Below are positions 533 to 28,416 of a stretch of 31,118 nucleotides of DNA, piece by piece (position 1 is the stretch's first letter; the number at the start of each line of letters is the position of its first letter). The translations under genes and the position numbers were made by a program. The notes below the pieces were generated by a model. The model made no database searches, was not told the DNA's origin, and saw only the letters and a program-made list of their open reading frames with translations. Origin of the DNA: Amanita rubescens (taxonomy: Eukaryota > Basidiomycota > Agaricomycetes > Agaricales > Amanitaceae); assembly GCA_015039365.1 (NCBI GenBank), contig WION01000583.1, positions 1 to 31,118 of the forward strand, in the 5' to 3' direction.

Positions 533-2719
533 TTAGAATGGTGGGAGATTATATATTTCCCTCAGTCCCTGCTCGGCGTTCAAAACACGGCGCTCCATCA
601 TCATCAGTCCAAGGTCCCTGAGAGCTGGAACCTGCACTCGTGCAGTGAATATAAGCCGCCCGACTGCCCATATGTCCACATCTGCACCATGATTATCTTC
701 ATATACCTTTGGTGAATGTTCACGCTGGCTCAAATGTGGTGCTGCTTTCGTCGGCGCAAAGGAAGCATCTTCCCAGTCAATCAGAAACCACTTGGAAGAG
801 TCTTCACGGCTTTGCATAATATTCGGCCAACGGATATCGCGATGAAACACTGGTGGATCAGCATGGGCTACCTGACCAGAGTGTTAGTTAATGACGTAGA
901 AGGAAATCGAGACTACTTTGAGAGCTTCGAGGATGCACACTACAGCATTTCGAACATCTAGAGGTGATTTAGGACCTTCATCAATGCCTCTTGGCCCCAG
1001 ATCGACGTATGAACCATGTACTTCATGCTGAATTTCAGCTTTCTTAAGCCGGTCCACGTTAGGAACACCCTTCGAAACTAGTGACGCATAGATCGCCATT
1101 AGGTGTTCGACGCGCTCTTTACCATTGTCCTCATCCCCTAATCTATACGTCTTGCGCACATTTGATAAAAAATATTCAATCGATTTACTGACCCTGAGTC
1201 TGAAGTCAATATACCGGATAGCAATAGAAGAAACATGTCCACCGGGACTGCAAATGCATGTCTCTATCTTTGTCTTCTCCAATTACCTGCTGAAGCCTTT
1301 TGAGAATCCCACACAACTTGATCATCCTTACAGCATTCTTGATTCGTTCACGTCGTGAAGAAAGATCAGCGGATATTAGATCCACGATCCGAAGGCTTTC
1401 GGCTGGTGGCTGGACTATAGCGGCGAGGACAACTTGCGTCCCAATAGCATAATAACCTAGACCCCGCGAAAAGGGATGATTGAAATCTTAATCAGGCACA
1501 AACGTCTACTAACCGAGAGTATAAGGTGCAGGATCATATACCCATCGCGTCTTGCGTTTGAGTTCATCTCGAGGATGCGCTCCCGCGAAGTAAATTCTCT
1601 TTTCTTCACCTCGGAATACGCAAACGTTGGAAAGTAGGAGACCAAAGCAAGGTCGCAACTTGTCAATTTCTGTACCCTGGTCCCGAATACAAGCAACACC
1701 CAAGGGTCGCTCGAGGATGTGTCGGATGTTTCTATCCCAAAACGAAATAAGCGACATTTCAGTACCGCTTGGGTCTACTGGATCCAGTGCAATTGCATGA
1801 TCAAACAGGGGTAGAATCCCAACAGCAGTTTCATCTTCGCTTTGCTTAAACAGAAGTTCAAGGTCTTCATCGCTGCAGACTTGGGCAGAATATTTTTCAT
1901 TGGACAAGTATCCCTTCCGCCGGTTGTACGATAACGGGATCTTCCAATCTGGATCAAGAGGCTTCTCAAAATATTCCTTTAGGTGCTGGAGATCCAGCGC
2001 CACTGGTTTTGTCCATAGACTGCTTAACTTTTGCGATATGTCAGCTATAGCGTGATTAGTACTTAGGTTTAAGGCCACATCAGAAGAGGACCAACTAGGG
2101 TCATCGCGTTTTCTTTTCAAAAGTGATACTGAAACAAGAATTAGGATGGCAAATTGTATAAAGGGAAAAGGTTTCGGTGAATTTCGGCAAACAAGAGCGC
2201 GAACGCAGTCCAAATCGTGGAGTTGGTAAAGGAAAAAAAAGTTTTCGGGCAGAATCTCATCAGCAACGTTCAGCTGCGGAGATTTACTTCCACTCACCGG
2301 TGGCCGGGGCCTTTACAATTATGTGAATTTCGTGTTTGGGAGGCGACATTGAAAAGATATCGAAGACGCTGTCCGTGGGGTCTAATTCGTCCGCAAATTC
2401 AGAAAGACCACCTTCCAGAGACCCGATACGTGCAGCCAAAGTCTTTTCTGGTTTCGCAGCGATAGGGTCCTTGGGCTGAGGAAAGCAATGTCATTTCACA
2501 TCGCAAGTTATCAATGGCGCTCACCTTCCACAATTCCAGAGTGTGAGGATCAACATCCTTTAAGGTACCATGTCTTGCCTCGCTTTGTATAACTTCCTTC
2601 AATTCGCTAACCACATAATCGCGCCCCACGGTAACTATTAAGACTTTATATTTGCCTTTTATAAGACAATTAAGCCGGAGAGAACCGTCCTGGTTCGGGA
2701 CCAGTGGGGAACCAAGCAT
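533..2719 (-). CDS. Crinkler (CRN) protein with C-terminal protein-kinase-like domain
   Basis: CRN proteins carry an N-terminal ubiquitin-like header joined to a variable effector domain. Exon 1 (2719-2525) encodes the header with SLRLNCLI and LELWK; exon 2 (2475-2298) continues it to a segment ending IHIIVKAPAT. Exon 3 (2128-1514) starts with a basic KRKRDD stretch and holds a long acidic/aromatic region. Exon 4 begins at 1456 (YYAIGTQVVLAAIV). A further exon ends at 917, and the last exon (871-533) carries the kinase core: FHRDIRWPNIM (HRD...N) and FLIDWEDA in place of DFG. Exons 1-4 join in frame through normal introns. The join near 1245 between exon 4 and the kinase part needs a one-base shift or an intron I could not find, so the gene may be damaged. 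An alternative upstream ATG lies at 2776. It is transcribed away from the second CRN gene, with about 400 bp between the start codons. Confidence 0.7.
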
Positions 2720-2770
2720 TCTGTCACTGTCGCTTGAAGGCAGAAAGGAGAGAACCGACAGGCTAGTCTG
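2290..2770 (-). repeat. Left arm of CRN inverted repeat
   Basis: The minus strand here is closely similar to the plus strand of about 3075-3560. Both encode the CRN header, share the 50-51 nt intron beginning gtgagcgcc after LELWK, and share the donor gtgagtggaag at the header's end. Similarity runs on into the following intron (the aactccacgatttgg stretch). The arms face away from each other across about 300 bp. Confidence 0.8.
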
Positions 2771-2802
2771 AGACATGTACTAGTAGGGGAGTTGTCAGAT
2801 GC

Positions 2803-3074: not shown

Positions 3075-3560
3075 TGTCTCATCAGACTAGTTTGTCGGTT
3101 CTCTCCTTTCTGCCCTCAACAGCGACAGAATGCTTGGTACCCCACTGGTCCCGAACCAGGACGGCTCTCTCCGGCTTAATTGTCTTATCGAAGGCAAATA
3201 TAAAATCGTTCAAGTTACCGTGGAGCACAATTGGGTGGTTTTTAGCGACTTGAAGGAAGTTATACAAAGCGAGGCAAGACATGGTACCTTAAAGGATGTT
3301 GATCCTCACACTCTGGAATTGTGGAAGGTGAGCGCCATTGATGACTTGCGATGTGAAGTGACATTGCTTTTCTCAGCCCAAGGACCCTATCGCTACGGAG
3401 CCAGAAAAGACTTTGGCTGCACGTATCGGGTCCCTGGAAGGTGGTCTTTCGGAATTTACGGACAAATTAGACCCCATGGACAGCGTCTTCGATATCTTTT
3501 CAATGTCGCCTCCCAAACACGAAATCCACATAATTGTAAAGGTCCCGGCCACTGGTGAGT
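3075..3560 (+). repeat. Right arm of CRN inverted repeat
   Basis: This is the partner of 2290-2770 in opposite orientation, covering the upstream ATG region, the header exons and the header intron of the nuclease-type CRN gene. A small deletion near 3118 (tcaacagcgacag against tcaagcgacagtgacag in the other arm) shifts the upstream ATG out of frame, so the usable start is the ATG at 3130. Confidence 0.8.
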
Positions 3561-5935: not shown

Positions 5936-6920
5936 TCAGACGCACTTACAACGCAAGCCGCCGCGGCGTTGGTTCTGGTTCCGTTGTTGCTGTTGCCGCT
6001 CCTGTTGTTGGCGCTCTTGTTGTTGGCGCTCTTGTTCTTGTTGCTCTTGTTGTTGTTGCTCCTGTCGCTGGTTCTGGTTCTGGTTCTGATTCTGGTTCTG
6101 GTTACGGTTCTGGTTCTGGTTGTTCTGGTTCTGGTTCTGGTTACGGTTCTGGTTCTGGTTCTGGTTGTTCTGGTTCTGGTTCTGGTTCTGATTCTGGTTG
6201 TTCTGGTTCTGGTTCTGGTTACGGTTCTGGTTCTGGTTGTTCTGGTTCTGATTCTGGTTGTTCTGGTTCTGGTTCTGGTTACGGTTCTGGTTCTGGTTGT
6301 TCTGATTCTGATTCTGGTTGTTCTGGTTCTGATTCTGGCGAGGCTGTTGGCGAGCGCGTTGTTGGAACTCTTGGAAACGTTGTTGGTTGATATTGACCGC
6401 AAATACCATTCCTGCAAGCGAATGAGTACATCGCAACTAAACACAAAGCCGACGACGTACCGTTTTGACAATCGTTATCCGCACCACTGTAGATGTAGAT
6501 GGGCTGATTGTCGTTCACCTGAATCTGGAACGTTGGATATTGTTGTTGGTTCTGGTTAACAGAAATCCTAATCGCGGACAAGTCGCGTTAATAGGTGGAC
6601 ACAACTCGCGTCACAAGACGTACTGTCCAGAGTTGAACCCATTGCGCGTGCAAGGTTGATCGAAGCTCGACTGCGTCACGGTATGAGTCCCAGGGAAGCT
6701 GAACAGACAGACATTAGCGAGGAAAACAAGCGGCTTAATCCACTTACAAGATGAACTGGATGATTTCCCCATTGCTCGCGTTCACAATCTGTGGCTGGAA
6801 AACTTGTTGATTGTTGGGGCCGACTTGGACGTTGATCGTCGGGGCCTGCCATTGGGTGGCTAACCCAAGGGGCAACGCAAGAATAAGCGCAAAGACGGTG
6901 GTGAAGGTACGAGAAAGCAT
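5936..6920 (-). CDS. Secreted cupredoxin-like protein with long Asn/Gln-rich tail
   Basis: Exon 1 (6920-6749) opens with a signal peptide (MLSRTFTTVFALILALPLGL) and runs into VGPNNQQVFQPQIVNASNGE. Exon 2 (6698-6624) gives GTHTVTQSSFDQPC. Exon 3 (6567-6462, donor gtacgt) gives FPTFQIQVNDNQPIYIY and NDCQNG. Exon 4 (6411-5936) gives GMVFAVN and then the tail. The order 'HTVTQS..F..PC', 'PTF.I.VND..PI', 'C..GMVFAVN' is typical of basidiomycete extracellular cupredoxin-fold proteins. Copper binding is uncertain because the usual His beside the late Cys is absent. The last 130 or so residues are QNQNQNN-type repeats, then QEQ/QER repeats, ending in a basic Cys pair. The phases of all three introns agree. 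The start is the ATG just before the hydrophobic stretch, downstream of a TATA box. Confidence 0.85.
5975..6350 (-). repeat. Imperfect 6-bp (Gln-Asn) coding repeat
   Basis: On the minus strand, cagaac/cagaat units alternate with cagaacaac, giving (QN)n, QNN and QNR. Towards 5975 they change to cag/gag/cgc-rich units giving Q, E and R. Unit boundaries follow codons, so length changes stay in frame. The opposite strand's long Leu/Val frame is an artefact of the repeat. Confidence 0.85.
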
Positions 6921-8653: not shown

Positions 8654-11127
8654 ATGAGTGACGCTTTCGGTGAGAGTGTCAGTCCCATCGCTGCGATCCG
8701 AGCAATCTTGCACGACTACCCCTTCTCTGCAAGCATCCTTCGAGAGTTGTTACAAAACTCGAGTGATGCAGGGGCTAAAATGCAGGTTTGTGCTGCGCCG
8801 CCGCTCATGAGGCATGTATTGAACAAAACCGCAGATATTTGTTCTTGACATGGGTAAAGACGGGAAAGACTCTGCGCTGATGGCGTACAACGATGCTCAG
8901 TTCCATGAAGAGGATTGGAGAGCAATCCAAACGATCCACCAATCGTCCAAGCTAGCAGATACGTCGTGAGTTTGGCATCTATTTCCGCAGCAAACCACTG
9001 TTGACCTCTCATTTAGCAAAATAGGCAAGTATGGCGTAGGATTTAGGGCCTGCTATCACGTACGATGGTCCATTTTTGCTCTTCGCCACTGACCCCAAAG
9101 TTTGCATAGGTCACCGATACACCCCAAATCCTTTCTGGGTCATCGTTTGCCACGCTTAATCCCATCCACTCTGGCGGCGAGATAATCGACTACGATAAAT
9201 TTAAAGAAAGGGACCATCGCCGAAATTTTGATTTTTTCTCTGACATCCTTCAGCCTTCTTCCATTCCCGGAACGGTCATCAGATTACCACTTCGGTCGTC
9301 ACCGAGTGGACTAAGCGAGCGCGTTGTACTCGCTCAGGAGCTTGATCAAATGATCAAGGATTACATCACTGAAGAGTTGAACATCACTCTTCTATTCCTC
9401 GGTACCCTCAGGACAATCGAAATATGGAAAGTTCATGACGCAAGCAAGACACGTCTAGCTACGTGGACCAAATCCGAGAGCGTAGTTGAACATTGGAGCG
9501 AAGAGTCTTCATTTTTCGTTTCCGACGTAATCCTTTCCAACGGCAACGATTGCTTTTCTTGGCGGATCATTCAGACTCGGAATGAAGAAGACGAGGCCAG
9601 GTCTCGCCTCGCGACTCTGGTTAGTGGCAAGACTATCGATCACATCTTTACAAAGCACAAGTTGAACCCTGATGTGCGCATTGCTTATCCTTTGTTCGCC
9701 GAAACATACACCTCCGGGCGCCTCTTTACATTCTTGCCGTTGCCGTCCAGGACAGATTTTCCTGTCCATATCCACTCGCTATTCGCGTTGACATCGTCAA
9801 GACAAAGCCTGCGCAATCGAAACGAAACCGGGATTGTACCTGGTTCAGACAATGAGTGCGCATATATTTTCTTTTCGTCGTGATTTGGGACTGAAAGCTC
9901 CTATGTAGCGTCTTGATTAAATGGAACTCTTTATTGTTTGATCACTATATTCCGCAAGCCTGGAGCCATCTCTTGAAAACCTTGGCTGAAGATGCTCTAC
10001 CCGGAGACATTTTCAGTGCTTGGCCTCCCCATTGCTCGTCGATAACATCCGGTGATGGCTTATACTGGGAAAACATTCTCCAGGCGACGTTACATTCTTC
10101 GGTTCAGTCCGGTTTAGCGATCTGGCCGAAAGTATCGGAGACGGATACGATAACTCATGTTGGTCTGAACTCTTCCCTAGTCATAGCCAAAGACCAGGTC
10201 AATTGGGATGTCCTCATCGCTCTGGCCCGCGTTGGTCTAACGCTGGTACAATTGCCACAAACCCATACGGAGCTCCTCGACGATTCTATCGCCAAGTTGA
10301 CTCCGCGTGTTGCGCGAGACCAAATCTTGCTTCGTAGCCTCCTCTCCGGGTTCAATGGTTTGTCCCGGGTTCAGCGGAGAATTCTATGCGAGTACTTCCT
10401 CTCGGGCAAGGACTTTAGCAGTATATATGGCCTTCCCCTTTTCCCTGTCCTGGACGAAACCTATATCTCCCTCGACAACAGGACAGCGACAACTCGGCGC
10501 TACATTGCCGTGACTAACGATGAAGTTAACGTATTCGGAGCGTCATCGGGCGATGCCATACCTCTTGATCAGCTGCAACCCGCGGTGGCAGCGTTGGTAC
10601 TGGAAATGGGCACGACTAAGGCCAATATTGATCTACTTCCCCCGACATCTGTCGTTGCCTATTTGTCAAGTGAAGCTGAACCTCGCAGCGAAGAGGATTC
10701 GTCGAAATTCTGGTCTTGGCTGAGTGAATGGTGTCACCGAGAGCAAGCGATGATGCTGCTCAAAGCCAGCTCTTCTCTTCGTCTTATACCGACATCAAAA
10801 GGACCGCAGCTTGTCTCGTCTCCCGTATTTCGGGCGCTAGGTGATCGCTTGTTTGAGAAGCTTGGACTTGCTTTCATCAGTTCTCTCCTTCCAAGCGGAG
10901 TGATCTACTTCCTGGGTAGGCACGGCGTCATCAGAGACACTCATGATGTGCAAGGCCTCTTGACGGCTATTTGTCAAGCGGTGTTGCAGGTGCATCTGTC
11001 TCTCTCGAGTCTCAATCTACTGAATACATCTTCGATAGTCATGATGGCACTGCAGGTTTTTGTCTCAACACTCTTCAATCACACCTCCAGACCATTCTCC
11101 GCTAACGATAAAGGACAACTTTGCTGA
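8654..11127 (+). CDS. Truncated sacsin-like HSP90-fold ATPase protein
   Basis: Exons are 8654-8785, 8835-8965, 9017-9059, 9110-9855 and 9909-11127, all in phase, giving about 756 residues. Exon 1 has FGESVSPIAAIRAILHDYPF and LRELLQNSSDAGA, the sacsin-type N-box of the HSP90/GHKL ATPase fold. Exon 2 has IFVLDMGKDGKDSALMAYND and exon 3 has KIGKYGVGFRACYH (the G2-like loop). Later regions include FTFLPLPSRTDFPVHIHSLF and LRLIPTSKGPQL. Exons 1, 3 and 4 have exactly the lengths found in the full-length paralogue at 19055-27354, and exon 2 differs by nine bases. Similarity stops abruptly at a CAG near 10989; a new 46-codon tail leads to TGA. An optional 69-nt in-frame intron (10990-11058) is possible there. 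The second ATPase module and the BTB domain are missing. Sacsin-family proteins are linked to chaperone activity; the role in fungi is unknown to me. Confidence 0.8.
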
Positions 11128-11941: not shown

Positions 11942-14900
11942 TCAAATGTAGATCATAACCTGTTTGTACAGAAATTCAGCCAATTCTTCATGACCACATT
12001 GCACAGACTCAGAAGTAATATGAGTCTTCAGTTTCTGCACATAGTCATGTTTCCTGAATTGTTTTAAAGCCTCCATGATTGATTGCAAATATGGCCTCTT
12101 TATCCAAAATGACAGCTTGGCAATGATGTTAATTGCTTGGAAGTATTAGCATAAGTGCAGCATAGTGAATAAGATGGAATTAAATTACCAACTACCACTT
12201 GGCATGCTGTAGGCTTATTGTGGTAATGTTAATACTTTTAAAAGGGGAAAGGGAAACTCATACAGTTGCTGAAAAATTCTCTGGTTGATCTCCAAACAGG
12301 GAGAAAAGTTCAGGCTGACTATTAGAAAGGAAACTTCCTAGCAAAATTGGACTTACACACTAGCATGCAAATTAATATCAAGATTCATATCTTCCACAAT
12401 CTTATCACTCACCTGCAGAGTCAGGATAGTCATAAGAATTAATAGAATGTTCCAGGAGACAATATGCCCACAATCTATAGGTAATAATAACATCAGGCCA
12501 AATCACAAAGAAAATGGACAAGCTGTGCTCTCACTTGCTGTATTCATATATTTGAGAATTGAAAGATTGAGACTTGGAGAAAAATGCAATGTCACTCACA
12601 GCCTGATAGTTATAGGAGAAGATGTGGGGAGGTAGGCTTTAAGAAAAATAGTGACACCCACTTGCTGTTGGTTACAAGAGAAAATGTAATGTGACTGGCT
12701 TTCAGAAGGATGTGCACTGCCACTCACTGCCTGTTGGTCATAGGTGGTGTGATAAGACTGCTGTTCAAAATATCACTTACTTCCTGAGTTCATTTGGCAA
12801 GGTAAAAAGACTTCCTTGGAGAAAATGTGCAATATGCAATGTTACCCACTTCCTGTTGATGAGAGATGTGGTGAGAATCTTTCAGGAAATTCAAATGTTA
12901 TTCACAATCTGTGAGTCATAGGAGAATATATGTATATATGTTGAGGCTACCTTTCAGAAATTGCAATGTGACTCACAAACTATTAGCCACAAGAATGTAT
13001 GATGAGCTGCAATTTAGAAATGTGTTTTGTCACTCACTTGCTGTAGGAGAATATGTGATGAGGTGATTGGCTTTTAGAAAATTACCATGTCACCCACTTG
13101 CTGTTGGTTATAGGAGAAGGAGAAGATACAATAAGACTGGCTTTGAAAAAGAATGATAACACTCACTCGCTGTTCATTGCATATGAAAAAGTAATGTGGC
13201 TTTTAAATTCAAGTATTGAAATATGTAATGTCAACTCACTTGCTGTTCATTACATGGTGGGATGAAACTGCTGGTCAGACTCAAATGTACAATGTACCTA
13301 CTTGCTGTTGATCATGGAAGAAGCTGTGATGAGGCTCCCTTGAGAAAGACTGTGACATCACTCACTATCTGTTCATCATGTAATGAGAGTAACTTTCAGA
13401 TAATGTACAATATTGCTCACTTGCTGCCAATTTTAAGAGAAAATGTGATGAGAGTGTCTCACATGGATGTAATGTTACTACTCACTCGCTGTTGATCAAA
13501 GATAAGAAAAGATATGATCAGATTGCATTGCGGAGGCTGTGGTATCACTCACTCTCTGTGGGTTATAGAATGCATTTGTGATTATACTGCATTCCAAAAA
13601 TGTGTAATACTAATCACATACTCTCTTTGGCCACAGAGAATGTGATGACATTGCCTTTCAGAAATATGTACAAATTACTCACTCGCTGTTAGTCATACAA
13701 GCAGATGTCATAAGACTGCCTTTCAGAAGAATGTGTAGAATTACCCACTTCCTGTTAGGAAATATGATGACATTGAAACACCATATGTACAACATAAGAT
13801 CACTTACTCGCTGCCATTTGTCATACAAGGTAATGTGATTGGATTCATTGGAGTGCATTTTGGAGAAATTACAATGCCACTCACTCTCTGTTGGTCATAG
13901 ATAACTGGCAGTATTGAACACTGAGTAATGTCACTCACTCCCTGTTGGTCATAAGGATGTAATGTCATTGTTTTAAAAACATTCAATTGCACTTACAAAC
14001 TGTTCACAGAGCATTTGGGCATGACATGTTCAAGTGGGTGAATTACAAAACAAGGAGTCATGTCACTCACTCTCTGTTGCTCATAAGATGTGGTTAAATC
14101 CAGATGATGGTGAATCTGAGTATCACTCACATACTATTGACCATAAAGTTGTGATGAGAATTGCAGAAAATGTGTGTCATTTACTTTCTGTTGACCATGA
14201 TGAACAAGTTATGATGAAATCTCAAGCATACTTACTTTTTGCTAATTGGATGGGATAAAACTGCCTGGAAAAGTGAATAACAGTCTCCTACATTCTGCAA
14301 GTTGTTAGTTCTCTGAAAAAATACAGTACCTCATAACTCACATCCTGTAGGTGTAAATGAGATTTGTAGAATTGGTTGGTTGACAATATCTCTCACTCTC
14401 TGTTGATGAAGAAGTGAGACTGCCCAACAGGCAATAACATAATGTCACACACATCCTTTTTTAGCAGTGAGACATGATGAACTACACGATGCTTAAATAT
14501 ATGTGTAGACTCACTGCCTGTTTGTCAAAGAATTATTATGTGATGAGACTTCTGGGCAGAAAAGGGTGCAATAAAGTTACTGACAAACTGCATGCAACAG
14601 AATGAGAGTGATAAGATATGTAGTCTGGCTCTTAAATCTCACAAACTTTGATCACAGCAAGAGGTGATGAGACCTTATAATGGGGGAAGAGTCATTTACT
14701 CACTTCCTGTTAAGAAGATGTGATAAGCCTATTGCAAAAAAAAAAAAAAAAAAAAAGCATGATCACTCACTCTCTAAATATAAGTACTATGTGATAAGTT
14801 TACCTGGCTGAAGACAGCAGTGCTACTTACTTCCTGTTGACCATGGGATAGAATGTCATGCATCTGCCTGGCAGAAAAAATGCAGTGCTACTGACACCCT

Positions 14901-17072
14901 GATTGTCAAAGGTGAGATATGATAAGACTGCCTGTTAAAAATAGCCTTACATCCTGGTGATTGTTAAGTAAGATCTAATGGACCATGCAATAGAACACAT
15001 GCAGGCATCACTCACTGCCTGTTATTATGGGATGAAAGTGATGAGTAAAGTTCAAAAACAGGAACTGCCACTCACTTCCTATATTAAATATCATTTAATG
15101 GTTTCTTTAGATAAAAGTACAATGCTACCAACTTTCTGTGTTCATAGTACAGATCAGATGCAGGAATATTGACAGTGTTGCTCACCTTCTGTAAGCAGGT
15201 GTGGCAGGGTGTGACTCTATGGTTGAAAGAAAGGATGCTGCACCACTCACTGCCTGTTGATTATAGGATGGAATGTGACAAGACTGCATATAAGGTAACT
15301 CTTCACCCACTTTCTATTGGTTATGCCATAAAGCATGAAAATGCCTTCCACATGTTGGAGTAAGATATCACTAACATCCTGTTGATCATGTGACAAAACT
15401 GTTGAGCAGCAGACTAAAGCATCACTCACAAACTGTTGCCATGAGAAAGATGCCAAACCATAACCAGTCCAATAGTAGTGACTATGTACTTACCCACTGT
15501 TGCCCATATCATCAGACTTGATCACAGAAAAGTGTGGTAATATAACTCACTTGTATCTCATCCTGTTGTTTAGCAGGCATATAGACATGGCTGATCAGAC
15601 CACAATAAAGGAAATGTAGTTTCACTTGCATCCTGCTGCATATTGTTGCAAGCATTGATTATTTCATATGCAATACCTACCTGTCTGGTCACCTGTCATT
15701 CAATTCAATTTTCTCTTCCTGATATGCAGTGTTAGAGAAATACACACACCCAAAAGTGTGGAAATTTTGTGAGAACCATGACAACAACATCATCCCATGA
15801 ACAATTGTCAGCCAAAACATGTCTGAAAACAGTCAAGTTTTTAAAGTAATACTTAGATCTGAATCATGTGATCCTCACTGAAGTGCAGATTTAACACAGA
15901 GATCAAGGTTATTCATCTGTGTTGAGACAAACAGTTGATGGATACTGTTATCATCTATTGCATCAGCTGTCTTCTGGGCTAATTCAGGACAGTTCTTCTC
16001 TGGTAGATCCAGATCTATGAAATTACTGTACATATCTCTGCTTCCAAAAAAGAGTTTTCCAATGCTCTTACCTTCTAATCTGACATATGCCTTGGGAGGA
16101 TATTTAGCATGCAATACTTTAGGAAGGTAAACTGTCTGAAAAATGCTTTCAGCTTTCTCCCTGGCCATCTTCCACTTATCATCATTCTCAATGTCTGGCA
16201 AGTTTGCATATTCATTGATGATTTGACCATCAAATTTGGTAAAGATGGTCACCAAAGGAACTGCAAAAAAGTCATTTAACAGTGAGTACAAGGTAAATTT
16301 TGCACATGTTTTAAATATTCAGAAAAGATAAAACCAATCATGATGTGCATGTATTTATAAACATTCTGAAAGATGAATCTCTTACCTTTGCCTCTCCCTT
16401 TATCAAAGAACTTGAGTTCTGCAGGTTGTATGGGACGAGGATCATCCATGGGTATGCAGTACCTGGAAGGGGCTTGCTGATCAGTCAGTTGTGTAAGATT
16501 GGAAATATGTACCAAATTGCATGCAACTGGTTTTTCAGTTCAGCTTCTGTGGATCTCTTTTCAATGAACTCCCAAGCAATCTCCAATTCCTCAATTGCAC
16601 CAGCCTCAAAACCCTGCGAGTCATGGAAGATAAAATTACTTCCAGGGTAAGTAATCTGATGTTCAATATTATGCAGGCCTCTCTATCATCATTGCATATC
16701 AAAAACTAAACTCCTACATTATCATTTTACCTACCTCAATTGATGGTATTAAATGAATGCTTGAACATGGAAGCTGGTCACCTGCAAGAAACCAAACATT
16801 TAGAGAATGGACAAAGTTCAGCTTGTCTTACCATTCATGTCATATATGATGGGCTCTGTTTCCTTGCCTACACCACAAACCTTCTCAAGGATGGTTGTCT
16901 TGCCAGCATTAGCCCTCCCTATGACAAGAACACGAAAATGTGTACATCTGTATCTTTCCCTGAGCACTACTATTTTTGCTCCACTGTCATTATCTAATAT
17001 GAACTGATGAGAATTTGACAAAGCCAGATAATTTTGCATACTCAGTGGAGGTGCATCAGCAGCATCTGCCAT
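11942..17072 (-). CDS. P-loop GTPase with a tail encoded by ~50 single-codon exons
   Basis: The N-terminal exons are 17072-16832, 16781-16735, 16682-16513, 16462-16386, 16260-15879, 15822-15750 and 15692-15681. They join in phase into 334 codons. Residues 52-60 are the Walker A GRANAGKTT, 117-120 the DSQG of G3, and 186-189 the TKFD of G4; IFTKFDGQIINEYANL and LFVSTQMNN are as in fungal G-domain proteins. From 15632 the gene passes through 53 tiny exons (separate entry), then 12314-12264 (51 nt, PELFSLFGDQPENFSAT), 12213-12189 (25 nt) and 12135-11942 (KRPYLQSIMEALKQFRKHDY ... stop TGA). Summed coding length is 1443 nt, divisible by three: about 480 residues over 63 exons. The ATG at 17072 is the first in frame. 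Ordinary splicing explains the first exons; joining of the tiny exons is inferred from signals and phase, not shown. The exons at 15750-15822 and 15681-15692 are less certain than the rest. The gene is nearly CpG-free, unlike all its neighbours. Confidence 0.7.
12413..12414 (-). other. Acceptor directly abutting donor (zero-length exon, ratchet-like site)
   Basis: The minus strand reads ctctgcAG followed immediately by GTGAGTG, where every other unit has three bases between AG and GT. The flanking intervals (59 and 53 nt) are normal introns. Either this is a recursive (ratchet) junction, or a CAG codon exon has lost its AG acceptor (TG remains), or the whole 12471-12360 is one 112-nt intron. 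All three readings keep the frame. A 19-codon open frame starting at this GTG (VSDKIVEDM..., stop at 12353) is a less likely alternative end. Confidence 0.5.
14736..14756 (+). repeat. Homopolymer of 21 A inside an array intron
   Basis: A run of 21 A on the plus strand (T on the coding strand) lies within the intron between the exons at 14773 and 14706. On the coding strand it forms a long pyrimidine tract upstream of the next acceptor. Confidence 0.9.
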
Positions 17073-19054: not shown

Positions 19055-22000
19055 ATGAGCCGTAATTTCGGTGAAAGCGTCAGTCCCGTCGCTGCGATCC
19101 AAGCGATCCTACATGACTACCCCTTCTCTGCAAGCATCCTTCGAGAACTGTTGCAGAACTCGGATGATGCAAAGGCTACAAAGCAGGTTTGTGTTGCGTC
19201 ACTCAGAAAGCAGATGTTAACAAAGGCATAGATTTTTGTTCTCGACATGGGGAAAGACCCTGCGTTATTGGCGTACAATAATTCTCAGTTTCAAGAAGTA
19301 GATTGGGAAGCTATCCAAACCATCCATACGTCGGCCAAAAGAGCAGATACCTCGTGAATTTATCCATTTCCGCAATCAATCACTGCTGACATCTTTTTTA
19401 GTAAAATTGGAAAATACGGCGTAGGCTTTAGAGCTTGTTATCACGTACGTTGATCCATCTTGAGCCTCATTATGGACACTGAAGCGCATATAGATCACAG
19501 ATGGACCTCAAGTTCTTTCTGGGTCGTCCTTTGCCATTCTTGATCCCCTCCATTCTGGCGGCATGAAAATTAACTACAATGAATTCAAAAAATCAGACCA
19601 TCGCAAATGTTTTGATTTTTTCTCCAACATGTCTACATCTTCTTCTTTTGGCGGCACGGTCATCAGATTACCACTTCGGTCGAGGCCGAGCGAACTAAGC
19701 CAACGCGTCGTACTCGCACAAGAGCTGGATAAGATGATCAGCGATTACATCAACGAAGAATTGGACATTTCTCTTCTATTCCTCGACAACCTCAGGATCA
19801 TCGAAATTTGGAAAGTCCATGATGCAAGCAAGACGTGCTTAGCTACATGGAGCAAATCCGAGAGGAGGGCTGAACGTCAAAGCAAAGAATCTTCACTTTC
19901 CATTTACGACTCAGTCCTATCTGATGGTCATGCGAACTTCTCTTGGCGGATTATTCAGACCCAGAATGCGGAAGAAGAGGCCAAGTCTCGTCTCGCAGCG
20001 CAGGTTGGCGGCGACGCTGTAGATCTCATACTCAAAAAACACAAATTACGTCCTGACGTGCGCCTTGCTTATCCATTGGTCACCAACGAGCACATCTCTG
20101 GTCGGCTCTTTACCTTTTTGCCACTCCCATCTATCACGGATTTCCCTGTGCATATACATGCGCTATTCGCATTAACTTCTTCAAGACAGAGCTTGCGCAA
20201 CCCGAACGAGACTGGAACTGTAGCTGGATCCGACAACGAGTACGCATATGTCTCCATTTTGCCGCGATTGGGTGCTGAAGGCCTTCATTTAGTGTATTAA
20301 TCAAATGGAACAGTCTGCTATTCGATTACTATATCCCTCAAGCTTGGGGTCGCCTTTTGAAAACGTTGGCCGAAGACACTGTATGCAAGGATATTTTCAG
20401 TTCTTGGCCTCCGTACTGCTCGTCGATAACGTCTGGTGATGGCCTATACTGGCAAGATATTCTCCAGGCAACGTTGAAGTGTGCCATCCAGTCTGGTTTA
20501 ACGATATGGCCGAAAGTAACAGAGACGGATACGACCACATATGTCGACTTGAAGTCATCCCTTGTCGTAGCTAGAGACAAAGTTCATTCGGATGTGCTTA
20601 TCGCTTTGGCTCGGGTTGGTCTAACGTTGGTCCAAATGCCCGAAACCCATATGAAGTTCCTCGACGACTCTATAAGCAAGTTAACTCCACATGTCGCCCG
20701 GGACCAAATCGAGCGTCGTAGCTTGGGATTCAATAGTTTGTCTCAGAACCAAAGGAGGGTTTTATGCGAGTACTTTCTCTCTGAGAAGGACTTTAGCAGT
20801 ATATATGGCCTTCCCCTCTTCCCCACCCTGGATGGATCATATATATCCCTTGACAATAGGGACGCGACAAGTCGACGCTACATCGCCCTAACCACCGATG
20901 AAGTTGATGTGTTCAGAGCATCAGCGGGCCATGCTATATCTCTAGATGAGTTGCCACGCGAAGTGGCAGTGTTGGTACGGGAAAAAGGCACGACTCAGGC
21001 CAATATCGATCTGCTATCCCCACAGTCTGCCGTTGCTTACTTGTCAAGTGAACCACCACCGCTCAGCGATCAGCGATTGACGATGTTCTGGACGTGGTTG
21101 GAGAAATGGCAACAACGTGATCAAACAATGGCGCTCCTGAAATCCAGCACTGTGCTTCATCTCGTCCCGACGTCGAAAGGCCCACAGCTTGTCTCTTCTC
21201 CTGCGTTTCCGGCTCCAGGTGTTCCACTATTTGAGAAGCTAGGGCTTGCCTTTGTCAGCTCTGTACTTCCGAGTGCAGCAGTTCAATTTTTGAATAACCA
21301 CGGGGTCGTCAAAGACACTGATGATATGAACCATTTTTTGGCGGCTATCAATTTGGCGACATTGCAGACTCTCGGCGATTTCGAAGCAAAGTCGGTGTTC
21401 GACCATATCTCCACTTGTTACAGGTCACTTTCTAGTGATAACTTGACCAAGTTGAAGAAGCTACCCGTTTTCCCTGTCCTGGTTCCATGCGCAAACTTGG
21501 TCTCTCCTAGCTTAGCGCCAAGCACGAATGTGCAATCTCTGGTCAAATGCAATACCTCTGTAAAGTGGCGTACCATCGTCGGCCTTAGCGTCAAGGGAAT
21601 CTCGCCTATGTCCCTTATTCCTTTGATGGACAACATAAACTTCCTCGACAAGTCCTCCTTTAGCAATCCGTCATGTTCTCTATTGCAGGCACTACAACTA
21701 CCGCTCCTCAGCGACGAAGATATTTTGCTACTTGCCCTCGGTCAATTTTCTTCACAGCCAAAGTCTCTTCGAGCCCTATTCGTCTCCTACATCAGACAAA
21801 ATCACAGATGGACCAATAGCGTTACGTCAGTCCTTCGGAAGACACAGTTTATTCACTCGTCAGATGGTACCTTGCGATCGCCAATCGAAGTTATTGATCC
21901 CAACTCGAGGCTTAAAAGTCTTTTTCTCCCCGCTTCGAGCGGCTCGCTTATCCCGACCATGGAGGATGATTACGATCGCGAGATAATCGATGATCTTCGG

Positions 22001-25000
22001 GACCTTGAGATGATGAAGGCATCTTTGTCGTTAGATATAGTGCAAGAACGAATCTGGTACATCTCGGCAAATCACACGTCGCCTGAGGCGCTAGTCGTTG
22101 CTCGATCCTTGCTTTCGCTCATGAATGATCCAAGTTTCGTTTGTGCCAGTTTTCCTATCGACCGCTCCTTGCGCTGGTTACCGACGGAGGCTGGTCTTGT
22201 CAGCTTGAAAGAATGCATTGATTGGGGACGTCGTGATGCTGACCTGTTCGACGAAGTTCTCGCCACTCTTGACAAATCTTTTACAATTACACCCTCTTTC
22301 CGGGCTCTGCTAGGCTGGGATAAACCTCTGCCTTTGGATGTCCTTACGAAACAGTTGGGCCGTGTTCTTGGAAAACCAAATCCTGATACGCAATATCGCA
22401 AAATCAATGAGATTATAAGAGAACTTGCGACTCGCGAGCTCGGGGATGTAGACGTTAAAGCTGTACACGCAGCTACCGCTGGACGGCCTTGGGTACCCAC
22501 CAAATCTGGCACGCTCGCGCTGCCCCTCCGTGCCGTGTTCACAAGTGTAGTTGATTCGAGTTGCTTTCACGAAATTTGCTTCTCGAAGGCGCAAAAGCAA
22601 ATCTACATGTTCCTTGTGAAGATGGGATGCAACGAACGGTATGTTATTATTCTGACTAGGAACGGAGTCATTGACAATCGAGTCAGGCCTTCGGCGTCAG
22701 CGATTATCAGCGAACTTAATGCACTACGCAAAAACGCGGGAACGGATAGAAGCATTGTTCAGCAAGCGGTGCAATTATTGGAAATGTTACCTGATTCAAT
22801 AACAGACAAGGAACGTGGCTCTCTGTTAGTTCCAACAGACACGGGGGATCTCGTGTCGTTACGCACTGGCGTATGTTATTACAAAGGACCAGTCACTGGC
22901 GTAGACGATGGAAAGATCATCGCTCATCACCTTATCACTGAAAAACTTGCAAAGAAGATTGGGATCCAATACCTGGGCGTCGACGAAGCACTGAACGACA
23001 TCGACTTGGGCGGGAATCCTATCACGCTCATCCGTAACACTTTAAGGCAATATGATCCGAAACAGTTCTTTACTGAGTTTATCGCGAATGCATCCGACGC
23101 AGGTGCCAAGCGGTTCAGCGTCCTCGTAGACGATCATGAGGGTCCAACGGAGCATCTCCTCTCGGAGGAACTAGCAGTCTTTCAGAAGGCATCTCTGGTC
23201 ATATACAACGATGGGATCTTTTCTAAAAAAGATTTCAGAGGAATATTGCAGACTGGAATTGGCGGAAAGAGGGGCAGGACTGGCGTAATTGGCCACTTTG
23301 GATTAGGCGCACTTTCAATGTTTCACTTTACGGAGGTAAGATGCGGTTTGGCTGATCTTTCGCAGACTAACACTTCTTCTCTAGCTGGCTATGATTGTTT
23401 CGGGCGATCAAGTCCTTTTCATGAGTCCGTCAAAGCAAAACTTATCGTTCTGCGGGAAACACTCTGTTCTGCTTCCTTTGCAAAGCGTGAAAAAGTAATT
23501 GCTGTCCGGGAGATATTTTCTACGATTTTAATTTCTATTTCAGGCTATATCCAGATCATCTTAAGCCGTTGGTTGGATTGTTTGGGTTTGATCTTTCCTC
23601 CACTAAATCATATCAAGGGGTTAGCTTCGTTTCTTCAACGTCGTTCACTATGCTGACCATTTCCTAGACTCTATTTAGACTGCCGCTCAGGAACGAATCG
23701 CATTCAAGTCAAGATCCTGTTTCTACGACGCCTTGGAGCGTAACACTGGCCCAAGAGATGATTCTCACCGAGTTCGATAGAGTGGCGTACAAATCGCTTC
23801 TGTTCACTCGGCTGGGATGTATAGAGGTGCAAAAACGGCAGAACGGCAATATTGAACGTCTTCGCGCCATCAAAAGTGTCCGTGTACCAAACGATCCTAC
23901 CTCCGGTGATTCATTCAAATCTGAAACGGTGACTTTTGAATCGCCAAAACTGCAAGTGCCCAAATGGCTAGTCGTCACGATAGAGGTCAATGTCCCTGAA
24001 AAATTCAAGGCAGGGCTTGCAAAGAAATATGACATGCATCACCTTCTCCCGATATGCATTGCCGCAACGCTGGACAGTGACCAAGCTCAGAAATTGGAAT
24101 ATAATCTGTTCTGCACTTTACCGTTGCCCGTCACCACGCCTTTACTGGCCCACATCTCTGCTCCGCTGATCCTAGAACAGGATAGGCGAAATGTACGCAT
24201 CGACAGTGACCGAACCGAGATAGAATCCGAATATAACCAATGGTTATTGTCGTCAGAACTCCCTCGCTCATACCTTTGCTTGCTCGAGATGTTATTGCGG
24301 ATTCAAGGCACCAATATTGCGTGGTGGCCTGGGGCACACAACATCGATGTCAATTATCCGAGTCGGATTTTTATGAATGCTTTTTGGAGTTCCGAAATCC
24401 TTAAAGAGAGTTCGAGACGCGTTTTCGCAAGCAAATACAATCCTACATCCCTCCTGAGCCCAGATGAGGTTGTATTATACGCGAATAAGGCAAATGAATA
24501 CACGGCATGCAGCTTTACGCTCCCTAAAGTCCTATCTGCTATTCAACCCCCGAATATTGCGGAGCTCCCTGTTCAATTGTTCGATTACGCTAAAAAGGCG
24601 TTACGTATCGTCGATGGTCCGTTTCTCAAAACGCTTTTGGAGCATGCCGATCCGCCCAGCCTACGTTTGTCCGTGGACGAGATGAACAGTTTATTGTGGT
24701 ACCTATCGAAGAAGATACAGTTGGATGGCTTACCACTGATCTTGCTTGAGGATGGATCCTGTGCGAAGATCCGCTCGCAATTCACTCAAGCATATTATAT
24801 AGTAGGGGAAGAACAAAACGCTGCCTACCACCTCTTCCGACCCAATCGCCTCGTACACAGGAAGTTCACCGCATCTAAAGACCTTCTGAAAGTTGAAGTG
24901 AATGTATCACGTCTAGATAACGCTGGAGTAGCTGAACTTGTCGAAGATCATATTGGGCCTGATCATGAACGGTCTGGGGATGAAAAGTACCAAGCTTGGG

Positions 25001-27354
25001 TTGCCGCATTTTGGGACGCTAGGCTGAACGTCTCTCTGGAAAGCATTTCACATCTTCCACTAATTCGAACAATTCAGCCATCCAAATTCATCTCCATCAG
25101 TAGGATGAACGACCCTTCCGTTACTATTGTCGATGCGGAAAGGAGCACTGATGACTTTGACTATGCTATCCTGCAGAAACTTGGAATGACGATCGTTCTC
25201 AGAAGACGAATACCCGAAAAATCACCAGCTCTAGAGAAGAAGAAACAAGCACCATATAAAAGCTTCTTAGAATATGTGCAGAAAAACGAGGCGAAGGGGC
25301 TCGACGAGATCTCGAGTCTCAAATCGAACGATCGCGATGAGCTGGCCCGTTGGGTTCGGTTAAAGTTTTCTCAGACCCCTCAGAACTTGGCGGACATTGC
25401 CCGTAAGCTACCTGTGTGGCCTATTCGGCAGCGTTTCAAGAAGCCTCCTCACCTTGGTGCCCTGAAGGATGCCATTGTCCTTCCTGCCACTTTGCCATGC
25501 GACAATCTACTACCTTTTATAGATCGTCCAGTCATCAACTGGGACAAAGGTATGGAGGGCGTTATGAAAGACGAGTACAGCGCAAAGGCCGTCACCGAAC
25601 TTTTGCGTGTTTCACCTGGCTTTATTATTCGTTCTCCTACCGAACGAGCGGCGTACAAGCAATTCGTAAAGGCCTTTCTCAAGTTCAAGAGGGTCGAGGG
25701 GTATTCGCTATTAGTACCTAACGAAGAAGGGGTTTTAACTCCAGTCGAGAGCCTGTTCGAATGCCATGAACTCTTTTCAGCAGCCTTTAAGGCGTCCCCA
25801 GAACGTTTTCTTCCGGTCGACTTCCAAGACATAGCGGAGTTGTTGGGAGACTACGGTTTGAAACTGAGGAATCGTCTTGATCTTGCCATGTTCATAGAAT
25901 GTGCGAATGCATTTGATCAAGACAACGATGATGACGACGACGATGATAGCGGGTGCGAAGCTGATAACCACGACAAACGTAGGAGGAGCGAAGTATTATA
26001 TCGTTATTTCAACAACCTTTCCCTCTCTCCGAATGACGTTGGTCGCTGCCCTGAACTGGATGGACTCAAATTTATTCCGAGGGACTTTACCCGCAGGCCG
26101 GGCTATGAAGGGATGAACGTGAAGAGAAACAAGCAGGATGACATACTCTCACCCAGTAAAATCACGCTCACCGCATACGAACCTATATGTTGGAGCCAGA
26201 GGGGTTGTGTCGCAACTCAACCCAATCTAACTTTGCGCGGCACTTATCAGAGCTTGGGTAAACCAACTGGAAAAGAAGTTGCAAGTGTCATTTCTTTGTT
26301 CGATACCACAAATTCTCATTTGTTTATAAACAGGTGAAGCATCTCAAAGTTCTTGTTGAACTTGGCAAAAAGTACGGTCACCGTTCGGCGCTGCTCTCAG
26401 ACCTCAAAGCGACCTACAAGTGGCTGAACGAGAACGTAGACGAAATCCTCGCTGACATCAAGAACGAGAATCGGAGATCGATATTTCTCAATGTTGATAA
26501 CCCTGAATCTGATCCCTGGGCAGAGCAGTGGCATGCTGCTTCGAACCTTGTGAAGGATCTGCAAGACGTTGGAGATATGCACGACGTGAAAGGTTTTCTT
26601 CGGAATTACGACAATCTGTTAAAAGCTGCTGGCGTCAGGACGATCCAGAAAGTGAAGGCTGAGCCTGTAGCAGCCCAGGACAGGACGGTGTTTCACCGAA
26701 GCCGATTTCGTGAGATGCGTGAACGAGGATTTGAAGTCAATGTCACTTTTAAAGCCATGGACAATGAACACCAAATCGGTCGTGCACACAAAGCTTGGTT
26801 GAGCCTGAATAGCGAGTATTTTTGGCGCAAATTCGTTGTACTTCCAGACTTTCCGGGGGATGCTGGTAAACGCGCGCAAGTGCCAGTGGACGTGTCAGAT
26901 TGCTCGAGTCTTTGTGTTAAGGAAACCATCGGTAAGCATTGAGTCAAAGATTTCTTCTTCACTAAATTACCAACGCAGATTGGATTTACGTCGGCGAGCT
27001 ACCCGAGTCGATCAAGACTAATCCAAAGAGTGACGAAGAGTCAGAAACGAAACTTGATCTAGCCCTTGGCATGCTTAATCTCGCTCATCGTTGGGAGATC
27101 GCCGAGTTGCATCTCACTCTCCAAGATTTCATCATTAATGAGCAACATTTTATCAACCCGTACTCGGTTAGAGATGGTACGTATTCATTTTTTGGCCTGT
27201 TTGATGACGACTGAGGTTGGTAGTTCGCGAGCACGCAGAGAAGGCGAAGGCAAACAAGCTGTCAGAGGCTTGCAAAGAGTTTGAGGACAAGAATCAGGAA
27301 ATCATCGATGATGCACAGGAGCGTAAACATAACTCCAAAAAAGGTCGCCGTTGA
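19055..27354 (+). CDS. Sacsin-like protein, two HSP90-fold ATPase modules and C-terminal BTB/POZ
   Basis: Eleven exons: 19055-19186, 19232-19353, 19402-19444, 19494-20239, 20293-23335, 23385-23494, 23544-23619, 23668-26277, 26334-26931, 26979-27176 and 27224-27354. They sum to 7809 nt in consistent phase, about 2602 residues. Module 1 (residues 1-350) has LRELLQNSDDAKA, IFVLDMGKDPALLAYNN and KIGKYGVGFRACYHITD. Module 2 begins near residue 1240: FFTEFIANASDAGAKRF, SLVIYNDGIFSKKDFRGI and TGVIGHFGLGALSMFHFTE, then GTLFRLPLRN. An acidic DNDDDDDDDSG run sits near residue 2175. From about 2427 the sequence fits BTB/POZ: VNVTFKAMD, RAHKAWLSLNSEYFWRKF, DWIYVGELP and LNLAHRWEIAELHLTLQDF. The tail is basic (KHNSKKGRR). 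BTB domains usually dimerise or recruit cullin-3, so a chaperone-linked ubiquitin adaptor is a possible role, by inference. Several introns use gtttgt, gttagc or gttgca donors. Confidence 0.85.
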
Positions 27355-27494: not shown

Positions 27495-28322
27495 CTACAT
27501 ATCCGGGTCATTCACTTCCGTAATGAAAGGCCATTTTTTCCCCATGTCTTCGGCTGCTACGCCGAGCGCCAGAATAAAGTAAGAAAAAGAAGAATGTATG
27601 GTAACACAAGACAGCAGAAACACATTTCCTACCAGCTGCAAACATGTAGCGCTCGCCAGTGCGGCAAAGGACAACTGAACCACCGTGCTCGGAGGCATAC
27701 AGCTGACAAAGGCCATGGCGAGTCCCAACTTCTCGAACGATGGAAGATCTGGCCCCCGAAACGCTAGAGATGAGGCAAGCTGCGGGCCTTTAGACGTCGG
27801 AATGAGACGAAGCATGGGGGTGCACCATTGCTAGATCACGGAGTTCCCATTTCTCCAACAATGACCAGATGTTTGCCAATCGCTCGTCGCTGAGGGGTTG
27901 GGGTTTACTTGACAAGTAAGCAACGACAGACAGCGGGGATGACAGATCGACATTGGCGTGAGTCGTGCCATTTTCCCGTACTAACGCCCTTGCAGCTGAT
28001 CAAGAGATATGGTGACTCCCGCTGATGTTCTGAACATATTAACTTGTTCAGTGGTAGGGCAATGTAGCGTAGAGTCTTCAAATGTGTGTCAAGGGGGAAG
28101 GGCATCTAGATTCTACGGTACTAAAGTCCTTGTCCGAGTCGGATAGGATCCTCCTTTGGTTCTGAGACAAGTCGTCGAATGCCTTGGTTACAGAATCATT
28201 GAGGAATTCGAGGCAATTGAACCAAGTCGAGCCAGGGTAATAAGGACGACAACCACGGCGACGGATGACTTCAAATCCGCTAGATATTTTCGGCCAGATG
28301 GCGCAAAAGTTAACGTCACGAC
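27495..28322 (-). pseudogene. Decayed sacsin-like fragment
   Basis: Read on the minus strand from 28322, pieces of the sacsin-like protein appear in order but in broken frames: DLKSSV; EFLNDSVTKAFDDLSQNQRR; DKDFST; THLKTLRYIALPLNK; then LRLIPTSKGPQLASSLAF and FEKLGLAMAFVS. These match about 20550-21270 of the intact gene, for example FLDDSISK, LSQNQRRVLCEYF, KDFSSIYG and VPTSKGPQLVSSPAF. Deletions and stops separate them. It is tail-to-tail with the intact gene and head-to-head with the third CRN gene. Confidence 0.75.
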
Positions 28323-28416
28323 TCGGGAGGCAATGTGGCAGACTATATGCGCACGCCTGGCACGTGGCAGTGCAACGACTCTTGCTGCAGCTCCACCCCG
28401 TTACATTGCAGTCCCG

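What the first reader, a model, noticed from the sequence alone, without database searches (positions are those of the whole stretch)
12357..15632. A gene segment built from single-codon exons: 51 three-base exons in one array
On the minus strand, acceptor AG and donor GT are separated by exactly three bases in 51 of 53 units; the other two exons are 6 and 12 nt. Units are 50-77 bp apart, each separation being a normal fungal intron length. Donor and acceptor bases vary as splice consensus does (GTGAGT, GTAAGT, GTGGGT, GTTAGT, one GC; CAG, TAG, AAG), yet AG and GT themselves hold. The enclosed triplets vary most and contain no stop. I know of no described gene in which dozens of successive codons each form their own exon. 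Splicing itself is inferred.
Basis: partly seen in the sequence, partly recalled or inferred. Interest (0 to 1): 0.98.

Follow-up and report, generated by a model that had tools for sequence, protein, structure and literature searches.

The report
Mushroom gene with one-codon exons
In a genome that very probably belongs to the blusher mushroom (Amanita rubescens), a GTPase gene holds part of its coding sequence as 51 three-base pieces, each bordered by splice signals and about 60 bases apart, that are likely spliced together one codon at a time; relatives' proteins, read from likely transcripts, match these codons in order, and the same layout stands beside dozens of sister gene copies.

Summary
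Observation confirmed: 53 units, 51 with exactly three bases between AG and GT (one GC). Interpretation largely supported. The array sits in an intact minus-strand GTPase gene model: 65 exons, 64 introns, 445 aa. The triplets are codons: in phase 0 they align with proteins encoded uninterrupted on ~1.5-kb JGI contigs, probably transcripts (vs P0002 score 79, 0 of 5000 shuffles as high). At a sister locus 42 of 50 single-codon residues equal P0013. In a 94%-identical copy, intron bodies differ at 172 of 2712 positions, codon bases at 1 of 171 (synonymous), AG/GT at none. Genome-wide, three-base spacing occurs 2614 times, 0-2 bases 31, 4-14 bases 78. All 41 loci decoded (36 distinct places) carry such exons; one array has 127. 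Against: no transcript through this very array was seen; P0001 (one residue off the C316 copy) enters the first one-codon exon, then retains an intron. Some blocks have near-identical introns but hypervariable codons, unexplained.

The parts
11942..17072 (-). Whole GTPase gene model: 65 exons, 64 introns, 1338-nt CDS, 445 aa, no internal stop
   Evidence: aligns globally with P0007 (255 of 436), P0011 (253 of 436) and P0013 (249 of 442)
15750..17072 (-). Eight conventional exons: 17072-17042, 16993-16832, 16781-16735, 16682-16513, 16462-16386, 16260-16072, 16014-15879, 15822-15750; GTPase domain ending FPHFW in phase 0
   Evidence: all junctions match P0001, which differs from this model at 3 of 300 residues
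15681..15692 (-). 12-nt exon VTRQ before the array
   Evidence: present in P0001
12357..15632 (-). Array: 53 small exons, 51 of one codon, coding 57 residues DDEIQWFDKAKKEADGEREFFADRDNQKKYRFGRRERRRRQIQQRQQFIEEAQAQIC
15551..15562 (-). 12-nt exon DEIQ inside the array
14236..14241 (-). 6-nt exon QK inside the array
15563..15629 (-). 67-nt intron with the only GC donor; retained and translated to a stop in P0001
12411..12414 (-). Direct AG|GT junction (zero-nt exon) inside the last, 112-nt array intron
   Evidence: Read in the sequence; intron length
11942..12314 (-). Three tail exons (12314-12264, 12213-12189, 12135-11942) coding the C-terminal helical part
   Evidence: match P0007, P0011, P0013 and P0028 tails

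Best explanation
The array is a coding stretch of an intact 65-exon GTPase gene model in which 51 codons each stand as a separate three-base exon, likely spliced together in order to give a probably flexible linker between the GTPase domain and a C-terminal helical part. Shown by calls: the model is open end to end, the triplets in phase 0 align with uninterrupted relatives' proteins, codons and splice borders are conserved between close copies while introns drift, and the layout recurs at all 36 distinct places decoded (the window among them). Inferred: introns are recognised one by one (intron definition) and probably removed stepwise, since each removal puts the growing exon directly against the next donor, as in recursive splicing but with one codon left behind at each step. 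Inferred: arrays grow, shrink and change by duplication and exchange of units of one codon plus one intron (about 65 bp) and of blocks of such units, so the linker changes by whole residues without a frameshift.
For: Exon table and controls. Intact model. Single-codon residues against six protein tails: 0 of 5000 shuffles as high for P0002, P0007, P0009, P0011 and P0013, 48 of 5000 for P0036. Sister array L055: 42 of 50 residues equal P0013, score 231 against shuffles 31.5+-6.2; L056: 30 of 53 equal P0002; the decoder was trained on the window only. C316 copy: bodies 172 of 2712, codon bases 1 of 171, AG and GT/GC 0; C25 copy: 21 of 2712, 0 of 171, 0. Genome-wide spacing 3: 2614 (reversed control 7); 0-2: 31 (control 5); 4-14: 78 (control 25). 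41 of 41 loci carry 10-23 three-base exons. P0001 equals the C316 product in 299 of 300 residues through the first one-codon exon. Near-perfect repeats of a 62-nt intron plus one codon; duplicated blocks.
Against: No transcript through this window's array is in hand; P0001 ends inside it by intron retention. That the JGI proteins are transcripts is inferred from short contigs without introns; their DNA was not read. Tails of P0037, P0028, P0057, P0076 and P0087 align no better than shuffles. In more distant gene pairs codons differ as much as or more than intron bodies, and codon changes in the close pairs were non-synonymous. Three of four young-block copies (L058, L059, L061) have exons of 0, 1, 2 or 4 bases and frames that do not close. 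Two of 41 loci end on a stop triplet, and in five the longer first exons hold stops. The decoder favours 3-nt exons; without that preference 50 of 55 (window), 50 of 55 (L055) and 53 of 59 (L056) exons are 3 nt. A protein with the C3 array peptide was not found.
Confidence: 0.9

Rival explanations
1. The array is a tandem DNA repeat whose unit merely looks like acceptor-triplet-donor; it lies in a large intron or behind the working end of the gene and the triplets are never translated.
For: Units are repeats with a common consensus, and young blocks are near-perfect 65-bp tandem repeats. Of 68 NCBI Amanita proteins among the best 120 hits, 40 lack the FPHFW-type motif that precedes the array, 27 end 0-52 residues after it, and one (P0028) jumps to the tail without array residues.
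Against: Matches of codon order to uninterrupted proteins, conservation of codon bases against drifting introns, no stop among the 51 window triplets or the 127 of the C3 array.
Confidence: 0.03
2. The array is coding by origin, but in most transcripts it is not completed: an intron early in the array is retained, a stop follows, and the main product is a truncated GTPase. The array would then act mainly as a brake on the full protein.
For: P0001 keeps the first array intron, the only one with a GC donor; P0009 keeps the intron after the last array codon. 46 of 52 array introns would stop or shift the frame if kept.
Against: P0007, P0011 and P0013 run through to the tail. Codons and tail are under constraint between the window and C316: 5 of 445 residues differ, none of the 57 array residues.
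Confidence: 0.12
3. On origin only: the arrays arise by repeated insertion of a mobile intron (introner-like) into an ordinary exon every few bases, rather than by duplication of codon-plus-intron units.
For: In L058, L059 and L060, 41 of 48, 27 of 36 and 20 of 28 near-consensus introns (3 differences or fewer, which lowers intron diversity by choice) equal the consensus while codon diversity per site is 66-71 times higher; in L061 16 of 41 and 20 times. A seven-unit duplication in L058 keeps its first six codons, so codon diversity seems older than the block copies. In L058 and L061 splits mostly fall between A/T and C/G (by eye).
Against: The three copies have flanks 95-99% identical but different unit numbers (48.6, 36.3, 29.6) and different codons, which insertion into one shared exon would not give. 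No uninterrupted source was found for two concatenated blocks, a weak negative because that search skips simple repeats.
Confidence: 0.3

Closest known systems
Schistosoma micro-exon genes (MEGs)
   Same: Many very small exons making up to 75% of a coding sequence, protein variants by alternative splicing (passages of PMC4015677 read).
   Different: Here the exon is one codon, 51-127 in an array, introns are about 60 nt and repeat-like, and the protein is a GTPase rather than a small, mostly secreted protein.
Aphid bicycle genes and megacycle gene
   Same: Fast-evolving genes with an average of about 17 exons, one gene with more than 100 microexons (passages of PMC9168663 read).
   Different: Their internal exons are almost all phase 2 and are not stated to be single codons; here the one-codon exons are phase 0 in the window.
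Isolated three-nucleotide exons (Ncam, troponin T, homothorax)
   Same: A single codon as an exon, included or skipped (passages of PMC8042270; start of abstract of PMC7392893).
   Different: One per gene in those cases; here dozens in succession.
Functional microexon of Trichoderma Xlr2
   Same: Microexon in a filamentous fungus; its abstract says functional ones had not been described there before (PMC11121469).
   Different: One regulatory microexon against a coding array.
Introners / introner-like elements
   Same: Families of near-identical introns multiplied in genomes, including fungi (passages of PMC9860276; start of abstract of PMC4457414).
   Different: They insert into many genes; here the introns sit head to tail every few bases beside one gene family. 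Amanita is not named in PMC9860276's main text.
Recursive splicing at ratchet points
   Same: Stepwise removal through juxtaposed acceptor and donor sites (start of abstract of PMC8605326); the window has one such junction at 12413/12412.
   Different: Here each step would leave a codon in the mRNA.

Membership tests
Basidiomycete G-domain GTPase family | Sequence relation to annotated fungal G-domain proteins over the GTPase part | tested here: met
   695 proteins at E <= 0.001, named hits from Amanita, Jaapia, Mycena and others; Pfam MMR_HSR1 E 0.00079 but 20 bits, under the cut-off of 21.9
Micro-exon gene (MEG-like architecture) | Multiple very small exons between conventional end exons | tested here: met
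Micro-exon gene (MEG-like architecture) | Alternative splicing of the small exons | not testable with these tools
   No reads; only single transcript-like proteins
Schistosoma MEG family | Mostly a signal peptide or membrane anchor, small proteins | tested here: inconclusive
   The protein is 445 aa with a GTPase domain from near its start; no signal-peptide predictor was run
Introner | Near-identical introns in many copies | tested here: met
   Young blocks
Introner | Insertion into exons of many unrelated genes | tested here: inconclusive
   Of the first 100 of 2614 places listed, by hand 98 lie downstream of a GTPase exon match (46 of them in the C3 array, 12-21 kb away) and 2 beside a GTPase relic; the other places were not examined
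Introner | Target-site duplication or terminal inverted repeats | not tested
   No such analysis was run
Recursive splicing | Splicing intermediates joined at successive junctions | not testable with these tools
   Needs nascent RNA; P0001 is one product that stops after the first one-codon exon

The most novel reading that the evidence does not exclude
These arrays are a codon-by-codon diversity generator: near-identical introns serve as spacers and recombination tracts, each unit carries one exchangeable codon, and a GTPase family rewrites its linker one residue at a time without frameshift. Because one-codon exons in phase 0 can be left out in any combination, skipping could also let one gene make a very large set of proteins. 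The young blocks, with introns mostly equal to one consensus but codons hypervariable and different between gene copies with 95-99% identical flanks, would be this machine caught in action.
Probability: 0.4. Interest if true: 0.98.

Novelty: categorically new. Interest (0 to 1): 0.96.

Why it matters
It would move the lower limit of exon structure: dozens to more than a hundred successive exons of one codon, implying that a fungal spliceosome can work with hardly any exon between introns. Gene models miss it: of 68 NCBI Amanita proteins examined, none carries array residues recognisably up to the tail (27 end within 52 residues of the motif before the array, 40 lack the motif, one jumps the array), so the C-terminal third of a large gene family is probably missing from databases. 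It gives a testable system for intron multiplication and for protein segments that change in steps of one residue. The ten paper searches made (open-licence PubMed Central only) listed no gene described as built this way.

Tried and rejected
Untranslated satellite: rejected. Other phases: shifts of -6 to +6 bases scored at most 42 against five tails, phase 0 scored 54-91. A natural-looking reading of the young blocks one base out of phase was set aside, since any string of units starting with C/G and ending with A/T reads that way (reasoned, not computed). Ongoing codon hypermutation alone is disfavoured: duplicated blocks keep their codons. Viral contigs: three contigs with one pattern match each and no relative of the gene, taken as chance and not examined. 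Uninterrupted source of two young blocks: none (weak). A protein with the C3 array peptide: none at E <= 1 among 45 candidates. Fold search: distant dynamin-like and immunity-related GTPases (best E 4.0e-05, TM 0.34/0.41), too weak to assign a function. Prokaryote genome scans and the second structure job were not used.

Limits of counts. The stop-codon expectation used triplets typed by hand; 101 were typed while the answer lists 100 places, so it is approximate and nothing rests on it. The C3 count (127 of 129) comes from a decoder limited to exons of 3, 6, 9 or 12 nt and allowing introns to 900 nt; four introns exceed 90 nt. Pattern and tblastn counts are lower bounds by the tool's own note, and exon-5 searches scored 150 candidates each. 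The 41 loci are the best-scoring ones returned, not a random sample; five repeat a place, leaving 36, with allelic copies among them.
Full report
What was checked. The minus strand between 15632 and 12357 holds 53 units of acceptor, short exon, donor; 51 exons are exactly three bases, one is 12 and one is 6. With a generic splice consensus a gap of three occurs 37 times in the array, mean 0.18 and maximum 4 in 1000 Markov shuffles, and not on the minus strand outside the array or on the plus strand. In the 51 three-base units AG and the donor G are invariant and the donor T is 50 of 51; the first two triplet positions carry 0.06 and 0.23 bits, the third 0.87 (A or T in 49 of 51). The last intron (112 nt) contains a direct AG|GT junction.

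Where it lies. The window is contig C529 of a held genome of 75,703,713 bases in 786 contigs. Contig lengths there (C1 1,667,397; C46 736,667; C168 392,203; C179 390,329; C737 186,105; C768 184,121; C10 154,969) equal those listed with Amanita rubescens F5887DRAFT proteins, so the species is very probably A. rubescens.

The gene. Upstream exons join in frame to a GTPase segment ending FPHFW in phase 0. P0001 showed two further introns, in exons 1 and 5. With the exon VTRQ, 53 array exons and three tail exons the model has 65 exons, 64 introns and a 1338-nt CDS whose only stop is at its end. It aligns globally with P0007 (58%), P0011 (58%) and P0013 (56%). MMR_HSR1 of Pfam falls just under its cut-off. 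In the C316 copy the same model is open too: 446 codons with one stop at the end, 5 residues different, none of them in the array.

The triplets are codons. P0002, P0007, P0009, P0011 and P0013 are JGI proteins encoded without interruption on contigs of 1446-1506 bases; for so intron-rich a family this points, by inference, to transcripts. P0002 has NEIKWFAEAKKQADGEREYF where the array gives DEIQWFDKAKKEADGEREFF. With three-base exons alone the window scores 79 against P0002 (shuffles 30.4+-5.7), 63 against P0007, 59 against P0013, 56 against P0011 and 54 against P0009, each with 0 of 5000 shuffles as high; against P0036 it scores 40, reached by 48 of 5000. Five other tails (P0037, P0028, P0057, P0076, P0087) do no better than shuffles. 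Shifting the reading by one to six bases destroys the match.

A closer pair. P0013's best genomic place has 91% identity over its exon 5. The array there (L055) gives 50 single-codon residues, 42 of 50 aligned identical to P0013 (score 231, shuffles 31.5+-6.2); L056 gives 30 of 53 against P0002. The decoder was trained on the window alone; without any preference for length it still gives 50 of 55, 50 of 55 and 53 of 59 exons of 3 nt for window, L055 and L056, while the opposite strand of L055 and L056 gives 6 and 8 scattered exons with scores 28 and 38 against 929 and 986. L055 has one four-base exon, and its tail exons look disturbed by eye, so that copy may be decaying; the comparison concerns codon order only.

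Constraint. Against C316 (94%) intron bodies differ at 172 of 2712 positions, codon bases at 1 of 171 (AGA to CGA, both arginine), and AG and GT/GC are unchanged at all 53 units; other donor and acceptor positions differ at 9 of 265 (acceptor -3 2, donor +3 1, +4 4, +5 0, +6 2). Against C25 (99.4%) the bodies differ at 21 of 2712 and codons and sites at none. In other close pairs, over 14 units, codon bases differ at 0-1 of 42 and bodies at 9-35 of 611-625; those few codon changes were non-synonymous, and in distant pairs codons differ as much as or more than bodies. So the constraint is shown for close copies, not for the family at large.

RNA-like evidence for this gene type. P0001 differs from the C316 product at 1 of 300 residues and from the window at 3 of 300. 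It reads FPHFW-VTRQ-D and then translates the next intron to a stop. So the introns around VTRQ were removed and the first one-codon exon was joined, while the intron with the only GC donor was kept. P0009 behaves alike at the far end: its IVRFHF equals read-through of the intron after the last array codon in L058 and L060 (L059 has NVRFHF). In the window, retention would stop or shift the frame for 46 of 52 array introns.

Genome-wide. AACAG-N3-GTGAGTGA occurs 2614 times (reversed control 7), N0-2 31 times (control 5), N4-14 78 times (control 25). A GTPase probe gives 227 matches, and exon-5 probes 150 each, the number scored, allelic copies included. All 41 loci decoded, at 36 distinct places with the window among them, carry 10-23 three-base exons in the stretch held, with longest unbroken runs of 6-23; W and F as successive one-codon exons appear in 26 of 41, and F-x-x-[AG]-K-[KR] in 29 of 41. 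Two loci end on a stop triplet, and in five (L014, L025, L026, L029, L050) a longer exon called by the decoder holds a stop, probably a mis-called border. The C3 array gives 129 exons, 127 of three bases, over 9.1 kb without a stop triplet; an open frame that I recognise from memory as copia-like lies between it and the GTPase match at C3:115093, so whether that array is still part of a working gene is open.

The young blocks. Three gene copies with flanks 95-99% identical carry 48.6, 36.3 and 29.6 copies of a 65-bp repeat: a 62-nt intron plus, mostly, one codon. Among units within three differences of the consensus, 41 of 48, 27 of 36 and 20 of 28 introns equal it, while codon diversity per site is 66-71 times higher, and the three peptides differ. 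L061 shows 16 of 41 and a ratio of 20, with exons of 0, 1, 2 and 4 bases. L058 also has exons of 2 and 4 bases, and L059 one or two of 4. A seven-unit duplication in L058 keeps its first six codons and a three-unit one in L060 keeps all three. Unit exchange between arrays, homogenisation of introns, or insertion of introns into an exon all remain possible; I lean to unit and block exchange.

Protein role. The AlphaFold model of P0013 (mean pLDDT 82.3) has a confident GTPase fold and a confident C-terminal helical part; of the segment between FPHYW (ends at 313) and the tail (from about 375), residues 322-336 and 338-359 are below 50, so this part is probably a flexible linker. Fold matches are distant dynamin-like and immunity-related GTPases. 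Function is unknown; a sensing role would be speculation.

Known things. One-codon exons are known singly and many-microexon genes in schistosomes and aphids. Ten searches of open-licence papers listed none with successive one-codon exons. I call the architecture categorically new because neither the unit (codon plus intron as a repeat) nor its density has a counterpart in what I saw, though it is kin to micro-exon genes.

Noticed in passing
L058 2402-5562, L059 1711-4073, L060 2410-4341: 65-bp tandem repeats with near-identical 62-nt introns and hypervariable codons that differ between three gene copies with 95-99% identical flanks.
   Followed up: partly
L061 (G000:C749:1500-7200): An array with exons of 0, 1, 2 and 4 bases among near-consensus introns; its frame does not close.
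   Followed up: partly
L057 1-2000 (G000:C3:124000-126000): An open frame recognised from memory as copia-like retrotransposon polyprotein lies just before the longest array.
   Followed up: no
L063 4891-4968 (G000:C1:763000-769500): A short GTPase relic (13 of 26 residues, E 3e-4) beside two stray array-type sites, perhaps a decayed family member.
   Followed up: partly
window 9110-11127 and 19494-26337 (+): Two related gene runs on the plus strand on either side of the GTPase gene (for example QVLSGSSFA, LIKWNSLLFD in both); they resemble sacsin-like proteins from memory only.
   Followed up: no
window 2399-2779 (-), 3091-3558 (+), 28147-28605 (+): Three frames share the stretch DPHTLELWKVSA or a close form (DVGPHTLELWKVSA in the third); reminiscent, from memory, of Crinkler-type headers.
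   Followed up: no
window 5936-6436 (-): A frame rich in Gln-Asn repeats over a 6-bp and 39-bp tandem repeat at 6068-6338.
   Followed up: no
window 12411-12414 (-): A zero-length exon (AG directly followed by GT) in the last array intron, which could be a recursive splice point.
   Followed up: no
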